Of a DNA stretch of 9,995 nt, positions 1,761-6,368 are shown in pieces. Under the pieces are notes generated by a model. It had not been told where the DNA came from and made no database searches. It saw only the letters and a list, made by a program, of their open reading frames with translations. How positions within the stretch are numbered: position 1 is the stretch's first letter; every line of letters begins with the position of its first letter. Both the position numbers and the translations under genes were made by a program. The DNA lies in contig NZ_CAMLMK010000097.1 of the NCBI RefSeq assembly GCF_946481155.1, positions 1-9,995 of the forward strand, written 5' to 3'. Source of the DNA: an uncultured Flavobacterium sp. (GTDB taxonomy: Bacteria > Bacteroidota > Bacteroidia > Flavobacteriales > Flavobacteriaceae).

Positions 1761-1914
1761 TTTTATACTATTTAAAAATTTTAACATAACTAATTAAAAA
1801 TCAGGTATTTATACTCTTATTTCGTTTTTTGGTTTGTACTAATTTTACCTCACTTTTTAATTATCGCGGTAACCGAAAAGCGAAACATAGAGTAGGTACT
1901 AAAACAAACACATT

Positions 1915-3940: not shown

Positions 3941-3967
3941 AAGCACCTTGAAAGAGGTGCTTTTTTT
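3941..3967 (+). terminator. intrinsic terminator / attenuator upstream of tRNA-Arg
   Basis: AAGCACCT (3941-3948) pairs perfectly with AGGTGCTT (3955-3962) around a 6-nt loop, followed by seven T (3961-3967). It sits between the promoter at 3675 and tRNA-Arg at 3984, with only 16 bases before the tRNA, so it can only reduce or condition transcription of the array if no other promoter is used. Confidence 0.75.
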
Positions 3968-3983
3968 ATGCCCGATAATTACC

Positions 3984-4057
3984 GATTCCGTAGCGCAACT
4001 GGATAGCGCATCTGCCTACGAAGCAGAAGGTTACAGGTTCGAATCCTGTCGGAATCA
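3984..4057 (+). tRNA. tRNA-Arg (ACG)
   Basis: A full cloverleaf: acceptor GATTCCG/CGGAATC (3984-3990 with 4050-4056, perfect), D-stem GCGC/GCGC, anticodon stem TCTGC/GCAGA with loop CTACGAA giving anticodon ACG at 4018-4020, variable loop AGGTT, T-stem ACAGG/CCTGT with loop TTCGAAT, discriminator A4057. CCA is not encoded. The most canonical tRNA of the array. Arg-ACG would be read as ICG if TadA modifies it. Confidence 0.9.
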
Positions 4058-4079
4058 CATAAGTTCTTAGAAAGGAACT

Positions 4080-4151
4080 GGCTCATTGTGGTAAAGGTTA
4101 ACCTTCCCGACTGTCTCTCGGGAGCTACGAGTTCAATTCTCGTATGAGCCG
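4080..4151 (+). tRNA. tRNA-Asp (GTC), divergent D-arm
   Basis: Acceptor GGCTCAT/ATGAGCC (4080-4086 with 4144-4150), anticodon stem CCCGA/TCGGG (4106-4110 with 4118-4122) and loop CTGTCTC with anticodon GTC at 4113-4115, T-stem ACGAG/CTCGT with loop TTCAATT, discriminator G4151 as expected for Asp. The D-stem is only GGT/ACC (4090-4092 with 4101-4103), and two bases instead of one precede the anticodon stem. It lies 22 bases after tRNA-Arg. Probably transcribed, but it looks unlike a housekeeping tRNA-Asp. Confidence 0.78.
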
Positions 4152-4157
4152 CTAATA

Positions 4158-4230
4158 CTGGGAAGATAACGATTGGTTGTTTGCCTGCTTTGGATGCAGG
4201 AGGCTGCAGGTTCGAGTCCTGCTTCCCAGA
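4158..4230 (+). tRNA. tRNA-Pro (TGG), aberrant D-arm
   Basis: Acceptor CTGGGAA/TTCCCAG (4158-4164 with 4223-4229), anticodon stem CCTGC/GCAGG (4184-4188 with 4196-4200) with loop TTTGGAT and anticodon TGG at 4191-4193, variable AGGCT, T-stem GCAGG/CCTGC with loop TTCGAGT, discriminator A4230. The D-arm is reduced: TAAC/GTTG with a 5-nt loop and four bases before the anticodon stem, so the usual G18-G19 contact is doubtful. The gene lies 6 bases after tRNA-Asp and 33 bases before the ATG of the 105-aa protein. Confidence 0.75.
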
Positions 4231-4263
4231 CTAAAAACTAAGTTTAATTTAAATGTGAATGTT

Positions 4264-4581
4264 ATGAGACCAGACATTTTAAAAAGGTTCTTAACCAACA
4301 CGGATGAGACCGGAAGATTTTTAATGAAATCGCGAAAGACAGGCATTATCTATTTCGTGGAGCCAATTTATAATGGCAAGACTCCTGAGTGGGGCGACAT
4401 AGACCCGGCGACAAAAAAAATCACAGGTAGTTATGGCTCAAAATATACCGGTGCCGTAACCAGGAAGCAGTCGCTCATTACAGAAGAGAACGGCTTTAAA
4501 AACATCGGATATTTCAAGGGAAGCCCTTTCGGGGAAATAGACCGAAGGGATAGGGAACATATGGAACGACTGGGGATGTAA
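4264..4581 (+). CDS. unrecognised 105-aa protein embedded in the tRNA array
   Basis: A soluble, charged protein (MRPDILKRFLTNTDETGRF at the start, GEIDRRDREHMERLGM at the end) with no signal peptide or membrane segment. Features: FVEPIYNGKTPEWGDIDPAT at 31-50, a Gly/Ser/Tyr-rich turn GSYGSKYTGAV at 55-65, SLITEENGFKNI at 70-81. I do not recognise the family. The frame stays open upstream through tRNA-Pro, so the ATG at 4264, the first after the tRNA, is taken as start; the longer frame would be tRNA read in passing. Its position between linear tRNAs and permuted tRNA-like units, upstream of the slipin gene on the same strand, suggests a role tied to these RNAs, but nothing in the sequence proves RNA binding. 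Confidence 0.65.
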   Translation: MRPDILKRFLTNTDETGRFLMKSRKTGIIYFVEPIYNGKTPEWGDIDPATKKITGSYGSKYTGAVTRKQSLITEENGFKNIGYFKGSPFGEIDRRDREHMERLGM

Positions 4582-4593
4582 TATTTTTATCAC

Positions 4594-4612
4594 TGCGCAA
4601 TAAGATTGCGTA
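4594..4612 (+). other. 8-bp hairpin downstream of the 105-aa ORF
   Basis: TGCGCAAT (4594-4601) pairs with ATTGCGTA (4605-4612, one G-T pair) around a 3-nt loop. No T-run follows, so it is not a normal terminator. Its CGCAA/TTGCG core equals that of the acceptor pair of the permuted unit at 4923-4941, so it may be a relic or relative of that structure. No T-arm precedes it. Confidence 0.45.
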
Positions 4613-4694
4613 CTGTGGTTTGAATCTTTGCTCAGGAAATAAAAATAAGTTCTTTGAATAGTTAAAAAAATGCCTCAGGTCGGAATGACTTAAG

Positions 4695-4707
4695 GGATAA
4701 CAATATC
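4695..4707 (+). repeat. GGATAACA(G/A)TATC motif, copy 2
   Basis: Second copy of the motif at 3913-3926 (12 of 13 bases identical). It follows the TAA (4691-4693) of a 7-codon frame beginning ATG at 4670 and comes before the permuted tRNA-like units, as copy 1 comes before the linear tRNAs. Confidence 0.5.
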
Positions 4708-4735
4708 AAACAAGTCTTGTTGCGTGTTTCTGTAT

Positions 4736-4759
4736 GGCACCATTGCAGCATCCGGTGCC
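4736..4759 (+). other. 6-bp hairpin GGCACC/GGTGCC upstream of the permuted units
   Basis: GGCACC at 4736-4741 pairs perfectly with GGTGCC at 4754-4759 around a 12-nt loop. It has the 3'-strand-then-5'-strand look of the acceptor hairpins at 4855-4871 and 4923-4941, but I see no T-arm before it and no clear D-arm after it. The region 4582-4827 otherwise holds no supported gene. Confidence 0.4.
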
Positions 4760-4827
4760 GGGAGGTATTCTGTCTTGCTGTGCAACTTGATTTGGAGGTT
4801 TCGGAGGTTTACCAAAAAACTGCCAAC

Positions 4828-4899
4828 TCTATTAGTCGTGGGTTCGAGTCCCACTCCCGATTCACTTGGGATAGTTCAGTCCGGTCAGAACAATAGATT
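4828..4899 (+). tRNA. circularly permuted tRNA-like unit 1 (junction in anticodon loop)
   Basis: In gene order: 3' anticodon strand TCTAT (4828-4832), variable TAGTC (4833-4837), T-stem GTGGG/CCCAC (4838-4842 with 4850-4854) with loop TTCGAGT, 3' acceptor TCCCGA (4855-4860), a 5-nt linker, 5' acceptor TTGGGA (4866-4871), TA, D-stem GTTC/GAAC (4874-4877 with 4888-4891) around a 10-nt loop containing GG, A, then 5' anticodon strand ATAGA (4893-4897) and TT. Rearranged, it is a normal-size cloverleaf: acceptor 6 bp plus a C-T mismatch at 1-72, D 4 bp, anticodon 5 bp, T 5 bp. Tertiary contacts are in place: T8 (4872) with A14 (4878), G15 (4879) with C48 (4837), G18-G19 (4883-4884), TTC and A58 in the T-loop. 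Anticodon depends on the join: TT plus CCAAC gives CCA (Trp); GCC (Gly) needs an 8-nt loop. Confidence 0.75.
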
Positions 4900-4985
4900 A
4901 ACCCTGCAGGTTCGAATCCTGCACGCAATTATGGCTTGCGTTTGACAACTGGTAGTCGCAACAGACTCAAAATCTGTTCGGTTGA
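4898..4985 (+). tRNA. circularly permuted tRNA-Leu(CAA)-like unit 2 (junction in variable arm)
   Basis: In gene order: variable-arm strand TTAACC (4898-4903), T-stem GCAGG/CCTGC (4906-4910 with 4918-4922) with loop TTCGAAT, 3' acceptor ACGCAA (4923-4928), a 7-nt linker, 5' acceptor TTGCGT (4936-4941), TT, D-arm GAC/GTC (4944-4946 with 4955-4957) with AACTGGTA loop, anticodon stem ACAGA/TCTGT (4961-4965 with 4973-4977) with loop CTCAAAA (anticodon CAA, Leu), then GGTTGA (4980-4985), which pairs with TTAACC. D-arm and anticodon arm resemble bacterial tRNA-Leu(CAA), a class with a long variable arm, matching the extra stem. There is again a C-T mismatch at 1-72. It shares 4898-4903 with unit 1. 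As a linear tRNA it fails: nothing downstream pairs with TTGCGT. Confidence 0.7.
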
Positions 4986-5270
4986 GATTGCATTGTCTCT
5001 TAAAATAAGAATGCGCTAGAAAGCCTTCGGTCTTTGTCAGTCCACATTGATTTTTCAGTAGAAGACACTCACGGTAAGACCTGAAAGCAGCTTCGTTTGC
5101 TAAACCGTTCTTTTGCTTTGATACTTGCTGGATTTTGCGTTGTGCAGGATTTAAAAATAGTAAAAAACCATTTGGATGCTTTTTCAAACCGGCCCATTTC
5201 CGTCCTTACCGGAGGATAAAGAAGCGAAGGTTTTCTTATTTAAAAAACAAACAAATAAAATATAAAAAGC
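4986..5270. other. non-coding leader between tRNA-like units and slipin gene
   Basis: No gene is supported. The most evident structure is at 5071-5108: ACGGT/ACCGT (5071-5075 with 5104-5108) enclosing AGCA/TGCT (5086-5089 with about 5098-5101). GAGA/TCTC at about 4984-4999 looks like a weak T-arm after unit 2. It may be part of one long transcript running into the slipin gene; no separate promoter was recognised. Confidence 0.35.
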
Positions 5271-6368
5271 ATGTTACAGAGAGTAAAAATTAATGCCTTA
5301 CAAAGAGGTTTGGTATTTAAGAACAGGAAATTGACTGAAGTATTGACCGAAGGCCCACATTGGATTTTTGGCAACAAACAGGTGGTCGTTTATGAAATGA
5401 ACCAAATATTCACTTCCAACATCGAATTGAATTATTTATTGCAGAATACAACATTAGCTTCCATGTTGAAAGTTGTAGATGTCGCTGATAATGAAATCGT
5501 AATATTATTTGTGGACGGTATCTTTAAAGAAGTTTTGACAGTAGGTAAGTATGCTTACTGGAAAGGGTTATACAATTTGAATTTTACAAAAATCGACTTG
5601 TCTAAAGTAGCTATTACAGAAGCTGTTCCGGTGAATTTATTGGAATTGCCTAAGATGAGAACGTTCGTCAGAAGATTCCAGGTGATGAGCCACGAAAAAG
5701 GGTTGTTGTTTGTAAATGGTTCTTTTGTAAAAGAAATAGCTGCGGGCATGCATTATTTCTGGAACAATGCAATTTCAGTGGAAGTAAAAACAGTTGATAT
5801 GCGTCAGCAGCAAATGGAAATCTCCGGCCAGGAATTATTGACCAAAGACAAAGCGACCTTGCGTATTAACTTTTTCGTAAAGTATCAGGTAAAGGAGATC
5901 ATGAAGGCAATTGTGGATACCAAAGAGTATGAAAAACAATTGTATGTTTTGATGCAATTGGCTTTGAGAGCCTTTGTGGGCGGGTATACTTTGGATGAAT
6001 TGTTAGGGAAGAAAGAGAGCATCGCTGAAAGCATCTTAGAGGAAGCCAAAGCTAAAATCAATGAATTAGGTATCGCAGTTTCAGATGCCGGTATCAGGGA
6101 TGTGATCTTGCCGGGAGATATGAAGGAAATCATGAACCAGGTGTTGGTTGCTGAGAAAAAAGCACAGGCGAACAGCATTATGAGACGTGAGGAAACAGCA
6201 TCTACCAGAAGCTTGTTGAATACCGCAAAATTGATGGAAGAAAACGACATGTTGTGGAAATTAAAGGAGATGGAATATGTAGAGAAAATTGCTGATAAAA
6301 TTGGTGAGATTTCCATTTCCGGTGGTGGTAACATGATTGGTCAATTGAAAGAGATTTTTGTAAAATAA
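5271..6368 (+). CDS. slipin (SPFH / band-7 family protein)
   Basis: A 365-aa SPFH-domain protein of the slipin type. SPFH proteins oligomerise at membranes or as cages. The band-7 core covers about 140-300, with QVMSHEKGLLFVNGSFVKEI at 137-156, VDMRQQQMEISGQELLTKDK at 175-194 and ATLRINFFVKYQV at 195-207; a coiled-coil-like Ala/Glu/Lys segment follows at about 285-345. There is no N-terminal transmembrane segment, unlike classical stomatins. The short motif 'hGLhh.NG...hhL..G.HhhW' occurs three times (about 7-34, 70-99, 138-166), so the N-terminal half seems to be built from repeats. It lies downstream of the tRNA-like array on the same strand and ends at the terminator 6373-6401. In bacteria slipins often accompany RtcB-type RNA-repair genes; that link is an inference here. 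Confidence 0.85.
   Translation: MLQRVKINALQRGLVFKNRKLTEVLTEGPHWIFGNKQVVVYEMNQIFTSNIELNYLLQNTTLASMLKVVDVADNEIVILFVDGIFKEVLTVGKYAYWKGLYNLNFTKIDLSKVAITEAVPVNLLELPKMRTFVRRFQVMSHEKGLLFVNGSFVKEIAAGMHYFWNNAISVEVKTVDMRQQQMEISGQELLTKDKATLRINFFVKYQVKEIMKAIVDTKEYEKQLYVLMQLALRAFVGGYTLDELLGKKESIAESILEEAKAKINELGIAVSDAGIRDVILPGDMKEIMNQVLVAEKKAQANSIMRREETASTRSLLNTAKLMEENDMLWKLKEMEYVEKIADKIGEISISGGGNMIGQLKEIFVK

What the first reader, a model, noticed from the sequence alone, without database searches (positions are those of the whole stretch)
4828..4899. Circularly permuted tRNA-like gene in a bacterium (unit 1)
The T-arm and 3' acceptor strand (4838-4860) precede the 5' acceptor strand, D-arm and 5' anticodon strand (4866-4897), with a 5-nt linker. 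Joining the halves in tRNA order gives a standard cloverleaf: ATAGA/TCTAT, GTTC/GAAC, GTGGG/CCCAC, TTGGGA/TCCCGA. The tertiary nucleotides T8, A14, G15-C48, G18-G19, TTC and A58 are all present. Permuted tRNA genes are known from some algae and archaea; I know of no established bacterial case. Permutation leaves a break inside the anticodon loop, which would need ligation to give a usable tRNA, or the RNA may act as a nicked tRNA mimic.
Basis: partly seen in the sequence, partly recalled or inferred. Interest (0 to 1): 0.93.

Follow-up and report, generated by a model that had tools for sequence, protein, structure and literature searches.

The report
Sealed permuted tRNA mimics in bacteria
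Flavobacteria carry, just before a slipin (Band-7) gene, two side-by-side DNA segments whose co-varying base pairs spell a tRNA shape in rotated order with the amino-acid end closed into a short loop; the predicted RNA is likely a tRNA look-alike serving RNA repair, not a working tRNA.

Summary
Window 4828-4897 holds a tRNA body in permuted order (T-arm, acceptor hairpin, D-arm, closed by the anticodon stem). A second permuted unit, keeping an anticodon-like hairpin, follows at 4898-4985. Two T-arms lie upstream of slipin in 77 of 81 loci used, window included. Unit 1: 99.6% of 1289 pair cells paired, covariation above all 500 shuffles. Unit 2: 98.8% of 510 cells. They sit in a larger predicted RNA with a conserved 5' domain, behind a palindrome that also precedes RtcB and TROVE genes in relatives. 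In 296 Bacteroidota genomes the 5' domain was found in 10, each time beside this slipin. Relatives add Rnl2/RLIG1 ligases and DEDDh exonuclease nearby. The acceptor end is a hairpin with a loop of 5 nt or less in 65 of 71 loci, GNRA in 32, so it cannot be aminoacylated unless opened. Best reading: a Y-RNA-like tRNA mimic of a Band-7 RNA-repair system, a new variant of a known kind. The scaffold function is inferred; there are no expression data here.

The parts
3984..4231 (+). tRNA cluster: Arg(ACG) 3984-4058, Asp(GTC) 4080-4152, Pro(TGG) 4158-4231
   Evidence: ARAGORN; Rfam tRNA 71.5, 48.8 and 36.1 bits; tRNAs upstream in 57 of 81 loci
4264..4581 (+). 105-aa conserved protein of unknown family
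   Evidence: no Pfam, NCBIfam or PADLOC match; 78-92% identical copies in 20 other slipin loci; 286 relatives
4594..4612 (+). operator-like palindrome TGCGCA-N7-TGCGTA
   Evidence: 0 mismatches; at most 1 mismatch in 66 of 80 loci against 65 of 2000 background windows; same palindrome beside RtcB and TROVE genes in relatives
4623..4630 (+). predicted promoter -7 element (AATCTTTG), start of RNA predicted near 4637
   Evidence: an AA(T/C)NTTTG element follows the palindrome in 58 of 68 loci that have the palindrome, any TTTG in 68 of 68; the Bacteroidota promoter consensus is recalled
4703..4826 (+). conserved 5' domain of the RNA (branched stem plus hairpin)
   Evidence: 79 distinct sequences of 123-135 nt, none of the 80 loci with units missing; 53 of the 79 aligned: 95.1% of 1995 cells paired, 18 of 38 pairs changed on both sides
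4828..4897 (+). unit 1: permuted tRNA-like domain closed by anticodon stem 4828-4832/4893-4897
4838..4854 (+). unit 1 T-arm
   Evidence: helix 2
4855..4871 (+). unit 1 sealed acceptor hairpin (TCCCGA-TTCAC-TTGGGA)
   Evidence: helix 3: all 5 counted pairs changed on both sides
4874..4891 (+). unit 1 D-arm
   Evidence: helix 4
4898..4985 (+). unit 2: permuted, class-II-like tRNA domain closed in the window by variable-arm stem 4898-4903/4980-4985
   Evidence: fold and rotated ARAGORN (tRNA-Leu CAA); closing stem
4906..4941 (+). unit 2 T-arm and sealed acceptor hairpin (ACGCAA-TTATGGC-TTGCGT)
   Evidence: 98.8% of 510 cells paired
4944..4957 (+). unit 2 shortened D-arm (GAC/GTC)
   Evidence: sequence; fold
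4961..4977 (+). unit 2 anticodon-like hairpin, loop CTCAAAA
   Evidence: in some relatives this hairpin stands beside a separate anticodon arm
4984..5015 (+). candidate H-type pseudoknot (GAGA/TCTC and TGCATT/AATGCG)
   Evidence: exploratory only, no control; overlaps the unit 2 closing stem by 2 nt
5271..6368 (+). slipin / SPFH Band-7 protein, 365 aa, no strongly hydrophobic segment
   Evidence: PF01145 E 1.6e-27; highest 19-residue hydropathy 1.43

Best explanation
Window 4828-4985 encodes two tandem circularly permuted tRNA-like domains inside a predicted non-coding RNA of about 400-500 nt that likely serves as a tRNA-mimicking scaffold for a slipin-centred RNA-repair system and is predicted not to be matured into a tRNA. 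Shown by sequence comparison: the permuted fold, its covariation, the closed acceptor hairpins, the conserved 5' domain, the place upstream of slipin, the palindrome shared with RtcB and TROVE genes, and RNA ligase, exonuclease and phosphoesterase genes nearby in relatives. Inferred: the palindrome is an operator of a stress regulon (WYL regulators lie divergently upstream in three distant relatives); when tRNAs are cut, the RNA is made together with slipin; its elbow (T-loop plus D-loop) is bound by tRNA-handling enzymes; because its acceptor end is closed it can be neither charged nor trimmed, so it can hold those enzymes on the slipin assembly, as a Y RNA holds PNPase on Rsr.
For: Fold and covariation. 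Larger RNA. Linkage: the 5' domain was found in 10 of 296 Bacteroidota genomes, all 10 among the 14 with this slipin and directly upstream (hypergeometric 8e-16; 5 of the 10 are loci already fetched, 2 of them used to build the model, 5 are new). Unit-1-model matches lie upstream in 13 of those 14; the last has only a T-arm and a hairpin. Repair context by tblastn, upstream within 8 kb, of 81 loci: Rnl2 ligase 11, RLIG1-like 14, DEDDh exonuclease 10 and 5 (two queries), phosphoesterase 7; RtcB somewhere in 23 loci (families). L120 has Rnl2, phosphoesterase, DEDDh, permuted pair, slipin, TROVE and further YrlA-like RNAs in order. Shared palindrome; WYL. In Citrobacter rtcR lies divergently upstream of slipin. 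Closed end.
Against: No RNA, binding or mutant data. None of the repair enzymes lies in the window itself, only slipin and the tRNA cluster. The RNA could be the slipin mRNA leader: its first T-arm lies 395-789 nt before the ATG in the 28 loci, and the consensus scan found no terminator between them. Unit 2's closing stem is only weakly supported overall (mean score 9.8 against 9.1, 2 of 300 shuffles). The fold is not peculiar to slipin: the same model finds RNAs beside RtcB or TROVE. In Photobacterium and Burkholderia slipin loci the tRNA-like RNA is linear, so permutation is not essential to the class. 24 of 81 loci show no upstream tRNA, and 12 of 80 lack the palindrome at 2 mismatches or fewer.
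Confidence: 0.55

Rival explanations
1. Decoy: the RNA soaks up or senses anticodon nucleases, with unit anticodon arms as bait, while the linked tRNA cluster supplies spare tRNAs.
For: Unit anticodon-like loops vary and overlap the cluster's set (Lys UUU, Asp GUC, Asn GUU, Tyr GUA, Phe GAA, Leu UAG, His GUG). The decoy idea was voiced for YrlA in PMC7790460 (passage).
Against: Unit 1 in most loci, the window included, has no anticodon loop. The commonest unit 2 loop, CTCAAAA (21 of 65), reads CAA, which is not among the cluster tRNAs tallied.
Confidence: 0.2
2. Cis-acting leader: the tRNA mimic lies in the slipin mRNA and controls its translation or termination by binding a tRNA enzyme.
For: Just upstream and on the same strand as slipin wherever the 5' domain was found; no terminator found between them in the window.
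Against: Distance to the ATG varies from 395 to 789 nt in 28 loci. The 5' domain and two units are larger than known tRNA-mimic leaders (recalled).
Confidence: 0.13
3. True permuted tRNA gene: the transcript is cut and ligated into a working tRNA, with the ligases nearby doing the joining.
For: Rotated units are called tRNA by ARAGORN; RNA ligases lie in the neighbourhood of relatives; some variants have full anticodon arms.
Against: Acceptor loop of 5 nt or less in 65 of 71 loci, GNRA in 32; no CCA; unit 1 of the window lacks an anticodon loop; the D-arm of unit 2 is short.
Confidence: 0.05
4. Ordinary YrlA Y RNA bound by Rsr/Ro60.
For: Same permuted core; YrlA is the best Rfam hit over the two units; the unit 1 model also finds RNAs beside TROVE (L110) or RtcB (L103, L104, L105, L111).
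Against: Scores stay below the gathering threshold in the window and in 15 of 15 genomes chosen. TROVE has no match in 12 of those 15, and the 3 that have it carry further YrlA-like matches next to TROVE.
Confidence: 0.05
5. Decayed tandem tRNA genes left by recombination.
For: tRNA cluster next door; a junction of tandem tRNA genes mimics permuted order, and many long matches of the model in other genomes are probably such junctions (not examined one by one).
Against: Near-perfect pairing with compensatory change across loci and a conserved 5' domain.
Confidence: 0.02

Closest known systems
YrlA, bacterial Y RNA (Rfam RF02553)
   Same: T-arm, closed acceptor hairpin and D-arm in permuted order, closed by the anticodon stem (consensus); RNA-repair and RtcB context (PMC7790460 and PMC8394870, passages).
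   Different: Two tandem units, a large conserved 5' domain, linkage to slipin rather than Rsr, and below the Rfam threshold.
SPFH/Band-7-associated tRNA-like RNA of Burroughs and Aravind 2016 (doi 10.1093/nar/gkw722; abstract recalled, paper not held)
   Same: A tRNA-like RNA as partner of a Band-7 protein in RNA-repair systems (recalled).
   Different: Whether they saw the permuted order, the tandem, the 5' domain or the palindrome could not be checked.
Circularly permuted tRNA genes of algae and archaea (PMC3978253, PMC3218864; search listing with abstract starts only)
   Same: 3' half encoded before 5' half.
   Different: Those give working tRNAs (recalled); here the acceptor end is closed and unit 1 has no anticodon.
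Linear tRNA-like RNAs upstream of slipin in Photobacterium and Burkholderia (this work)
   Same: Same gene neighbour, tRNA body.
   Different: Normal order; in Burkholderia the anticodon loop is replaced by GAAA. The permuted model still matches the Photobacterium locus at 39.9 bits, with several non-standard pairs.

Membership tests
YrlA (RF02553) | permuted tRNA-like core: T-arm, acceptor hairpin, D-arm | tested here: met
YrlA (RF02553) | score at or above Rfam gathering (69 bits) | tested here: not met
   36.6 bits in the window; 0 of 15 chosen genomes over the cut-off, best 56.6
YrlA (RF02553) | encoded with an Rsr/Ro60 (TROVE) protein | tested here: not met
   no TROVE among the 10 window proteins scanned; TROVE in 3 of 15 chosen genomes that carry the pair; the window's own genome is not held, so a distant copy cannot be excluded
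YrlA (RF02553) | long basal stem of 5' and 3' ends that binds Rsr | tested here: inconclusive
   the outer YrlA stems align with gaps; the 5' flank forms its own domain; binding not testable
circularly permuted tRNA gene | 3' half before 5' half, tRNA fold on joining | tested here: met
circularly permuted tRNA gene | acceptor ends that can be freed (leader/trailer between the halves) | tested here: not met
   loop of 5 nt or less in 65 of 71 loci, GNRA in 32 of 71; the parse takes the longest perfect stem
circularly permuted tRNA gene | anticodon loop formed on joining (unit 1) | tested here: not met
   the closing stem runs straight into flanks; 4898-4903 can pair in unit 2
circularly permuted tRNA gene | mature, aminoacylated tRNA | not testable with these tools
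   needs RNA
Band-7/SPFH-associated tRNA-like RNA | tRNA-like RNA beside a Band-7 gene | tested here: met
Band-7/SPFH-associated tRNA-like RNA | RNA-repair genes in the same neighbourhood | tested here: met
   in relatives; in the window itself only slipin and the tRNA cluster
Band-7/SPFH-associated tRNA-like RNA | identity with the published molecule | not testable with these tools
   paper not held

The most novel reading that the evidence does not exclude
Bacteria use non-translating tRNA mimics, closed either at the acceptor end by circular permutation (Bacteroidota, Subdoligranulum) or at the anticodon by a GNRA loop (Burkholderia), as the RNA core of a slipin ribonucleoprotein. It is switched on with RtcB and TROVE when tRNAs are cut, and its swappable anticodon arms match the spare tRNAs encoded beside it, so that it captures anticodon nucleases or presents broken tRNAs to ligases. 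Permutation arose by keeping the junction of a tandem tRNA pair.
Probability: 0.25. Interest if true: 0.9.

Novelty: new variant of a known kind. Interest (0 to 1): 0.74.

Why it matters
If true, it gives a clear answer to what a permuted tRNA gene does in a bacterium: the permutation closes the acceptor end, turning a tRNA into a mimic. It ties a widespread but poorly understood protein (slipin/Band-7) to a specific large RNA, to RtcB and Ro60-type repair through a shared palindrome, and to tRNA clusters. It supplies covariance-tested RNA models and a culturable genus in which the role of Band-7 RNA-repair systems can be tested directly.

Tried and rejected
Linear tRNA with missing halves: rejected. 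Tandem tRNA junction artefact: matches of the unit 1 model longer than about 85 nt in other genomes are probably such junctions (not examined one by one; evenly spaced YrlA matches at G001:C45 are an example), so the tally of 181 of 296 genomes was not used as a count of this RNA. YrlA membership: rejected. Viral copies: 0 exact matches of one 5' domain pattern in viral contigs, and one partial SPFH match in phages. AlphaFold models of slipin (mean pLDDT 59) and of the 105-aa protein (64) were too weak to use; Foldseek with the slipin model gave two matches with E of 0.001 or less, both to human stomatin with low TM-scores. The pseudoknot scan was exploratory and has no control. Papers: ten searches; none of the listings showed a paper on this permuted tandem; only passages were read.

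Rows dropped or chosen before counts; 74 of 81 loci have exactly two T-loop motifs in the 900 nt before slipin, four (L038, L040, L045, L047) have more because of linear tRNAs upstream and were cut to the last two, L010 and L025 have one, L046 none; L064 was counted three times by a doubled pattern and left out, hence 77. The acceptor hairpins were picked as the best perfect stem, so their pairing is by construction; the test is how often one exists. A2 holds 68 of the 80 loci with units (10 class-II-type unit 1 loci, L042 without a perfect hairpin and one duplicate left out). A3 was given 53 of 79 sequences. A4 was given 51 of 69, with 9 loci and the rest of the duplicates dropped for lacking a second T-arm or a perfect second hairpin. 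The 15 genomes were chosen by me from 80 loci. Of 21 other palindrome sites in 20 loci, ORFs beside 12 were scanned: 7 RtcB, 2 TROVE, 3 without a family over its cut-off.

Full report
What was checked. The unconstrained fold of 4828-4899 is the permuted cloverleaf, and ARAGORN reports a tRNA of undetermined type when the halves are joined in tRNA order. On the window as it stands ARAGORN finds only the three upstream tRNAs. Rfam aligns 4816-4916 to YrlA at 36.6 bits, E 3.7e-5, below the gathering score of 69, and gives the linear alternative 4865-4930 only 21.8 bits.

A second unit. Directly downstream, 4898-4985 folds as T-arm, acceptor hairpin, short D-arm and an anticodon-like hairpin (loop CTCAAAA), closed by TTAACC/GGTTGA. 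Rotated, ARAGORN reads it as tRNA-Leu(CAA). It can be read as a class-II-like tRNA opened in the variable arm, while unit 1 is opened at the anticodon. A caution: in L069, L070, L073 and others unit 2 has its own anticodon arm and a hairpin of this CTCAAAA type follows separately, so in the window the hairpin may be that second element, standing in for a lost anticodon arm.

Relatives. The slipin gene at 5271-6368 (PF01145) has its closest named relatives in Flavobacterium and Chryseobacterium, so the window is taken to be Flavobacterium-like (inference). Eighty slipin loci from these and kin were fetched. With the window, 77 of 81 were used as loci with two T-arms (how they were chosen is told under Tried and rejected). 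A perfect hairpin follows the first T-arm in 76 of 77 and the second in 72 of 77, against 12% and 13% of shuffled sequences. In the 71 loci with both hairpins the linear alternative pairs 1.87 of 5 positions on average, although six loci reach 4 or 5.

Covariation. For unit 1, 68 sequences give 1289 cells, 99.6% paired; the covariation score is 0.546 against 0.178 in shuffles (0 of 500 as high) and at most 0.109 in slid controls; 13 of 19 pairs have a change on both sides, a count that 4 of 500 shuffles reach. RNAalifold predicts the same 19 pairs without being told. For unit 2 (T-arm and acceptor hairpin, 51 sequences) 98.8% of 510 cells are paired and the covariation score is 0.748 against 0.205 (0 of 500); the count of pairs with a two-sided change, 8 of 10, is not above shuffles (194 of 500). 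The closing stem of unit 2 is clear in the window and several Flavobacterium (GAAAT/ATTTC, TGTTT/AAACA, GAAAAT/ATTTTC) but weak over all 65 loci tested (9.8 against 9.1, 2 of 300).

Closed acceptor ends. Among 71 loci parsed, the unit 1 acceptor loop is GTAA, GCAA or GAAA in 32 and 5 nt or shorter in 65. A stem capped this way has no free 5' and 3' ends for RNase P, CCA addition or charging (established tRNA biology). This is the main reason for rejecting a matured tRNA. Ten loci have a class-II-type unit 1; an anticodon arm was found by pattern in 9 of the 10, and its sequence recalls tRNA-Leu (recalled), so the mimic can keep an anticodon, but the acceptor is closed there too.

A larger RNA. 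Sequence conservation begins near 4700. The 5' domain 4703-4826 was found in every one of the 80 loci with units, as 79 distinct sequences of 123-135 nt. In 53 of the 79 aligned, 95.1% of 1995 cells pair and 18 of 38 pairs change on both sides, 0 of 500 shuffles reaching any of the five measures. A pseudoknot at 4984-5015 is a candidate only.

Promoter and regulon. A palindrome TRCGCA-N7-TGCGYA lies at 4594-4612. It has at most one mismatch in 66 of 80 loci against 65 of 2000 background windows, and an AA(T/C)NTTTG element follows in 58 of the 68 loci that have it at two mismatches or fewer. Elsewhere in the same loci 21 further sites occur in 20 loci; ORFs beside 12 were scanned: 7 are RtcB, 2 are TROVE and 3 have no family over its cut-off. 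WYL-domain regulators lie divergently upstream in three distant slipin loci (L131, L132, L133). That the palindrome is their operator is inference.

Neighbourhood. Between the tRNA cluster and the RNA, relatives carry Rnl2-family RNA ligase (11 of 81 loci), RLIG1-like ligase (14), DEDDh exonuclease and phosphoesterase (7) genes, rarely ATP-grasp ones. L120 (G010, the genome of L078) has Rnl2, phosphoesterase, DEDDh, permuted pair, slipin, TROVE and further YrlA-like RNAs in order. RtcB is in 13 and TROVE in 3 of 15 chosen genomes. tRNAs lie upstream in 57 of 81 loci, chiefly Asp, Pro, Asn, Leu, His, Phe, Arg, Tyr, Gln and Lys.

Distribution. In 296 genomes of the phylum of G002 (a Flavobacterium, so Bacteroidota) the 5' domain was found in 10 and this slipin in 14; all 10 are among the 14, with the RNA directly upstream (hypergeometric 8e-16). 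Five of the 10 are loci already fetched through slipin, two of which built the model, and five are new, so the figure chiefly shows that no unlinked copy was found. Unit-1-model matches lie upstream in 13 of the 14; the fourteenth (L131) has a T-arm and a hairpin but no match. In the four most distant loci the 5' domain model finds nothing. The unit 1 model also finds RNAs beside RtcB (L103, L104, L105, L111) or TROVE (L110), so the fold is shared with Y-RNA-like molecules. Outside the phylum, a Subdoligranulum slipin (40.6% identity) is preceded by a T-arm and, 2 nt on, a closed acceptor-like hairpin (model E 5.6e-4). Citrobacter has rtcR divergently upstream of slipin and an annotated nucleotidyltransferase downstream. 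Citrobacter and E. coli have a T-arm-like motif with a hairpin and a sigma-54-like TGGCAC site. Photobacterium and Burkholderia have linear tRNA-like RNAs, the latter with a GAAA-capped anticodon stem.

Mechanism. The most economical reading is a ribonucleoprotein in which the mimic's tRNA elbow engages tRNA-handling enzymes and the rest of the RNA engages slipin. YrlA is described as working this way for Rsr and PNPase (PMC8394870 passage). A decoy role for YrlA was suggested in PMC7790460 (passage) and is the main rival. A cis-acting leader cannot be excluded, because no terminator was found before slipin. Raised expression of rtcB and of a slipin gene in a mutant of TrcR, the repressor of a tRNA operon in Anabaena (PMC10272220 passages), supports the grouping in another phylum.

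Known or new. The permuted core is known from YrlA. A Band-7-linked tRNA-like RNA was, as I recall its abstract, proposed by Burroughs and Aravind in 2016, but the paper could not be read here. The tandem of two permutations, the 5' domain and the palindrome shared with RtcB and TROVE appear in none of the search listings. Hence: new variant of a known kind.

Noticed in passing
L010, L035, L037, L051, L056, L065, L080 (RtcB); L068, L079 (TROVE): The palindrome found before the RNA also lies just before RtcB and TROVE genes, pointing to one RNA-repair regulon.
   Followed up: yes
window 4264-4581: A 105-aa protein of no known family, 78-92% identical in 20 other slipin loci; the L020 copy contains a stop codon. 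One relative carries a tailed-phage label.
   Followed up: partly
L138 5498-5573 (Burkholderia arboris): Upstream of slipin, a linear tRNA-like RNA whose anticodon stem is capped by a GAAA tetraloop.
   Followed up: partly
L136 and L139 (Citrobacter, E. coli plasmid records): Slipin followed by an annotated nucleotidyltransferase, with a sigma-54-like site and a short T-arm-hairpin RNA upstream; rtcR divergently upstream in Citrobacter only.
   Followed up: partly
window 3984-4231: The three cluster tRNAs score 71.5, 48.8 and 36.1 bits, so Asp and Pro look divergent from ordinary tRNAs.
   Followed up: no
window 1863-1898: Rfam DUF805b motif (40.7 bits, above threshold) directly before a gene of the R_equi_Vir family (PF05526) at 1915-2376, not before a DUF805 gene.
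   Followed up: no
window 3941-3962: Terminator-like hairpin with a T-run just before the tRNA cluster.
   Followed up: no
G001:C45 43129-43582: Evenly spaced YrlA-model matches that look like tandem tRNA junctions: a likely false-positive source for YrlA searches.
   Followed up: no
L001 8991-9326: At the place of the 105-aa gene this locus has a HIRAN-domain protein instead.
   Followed up: no
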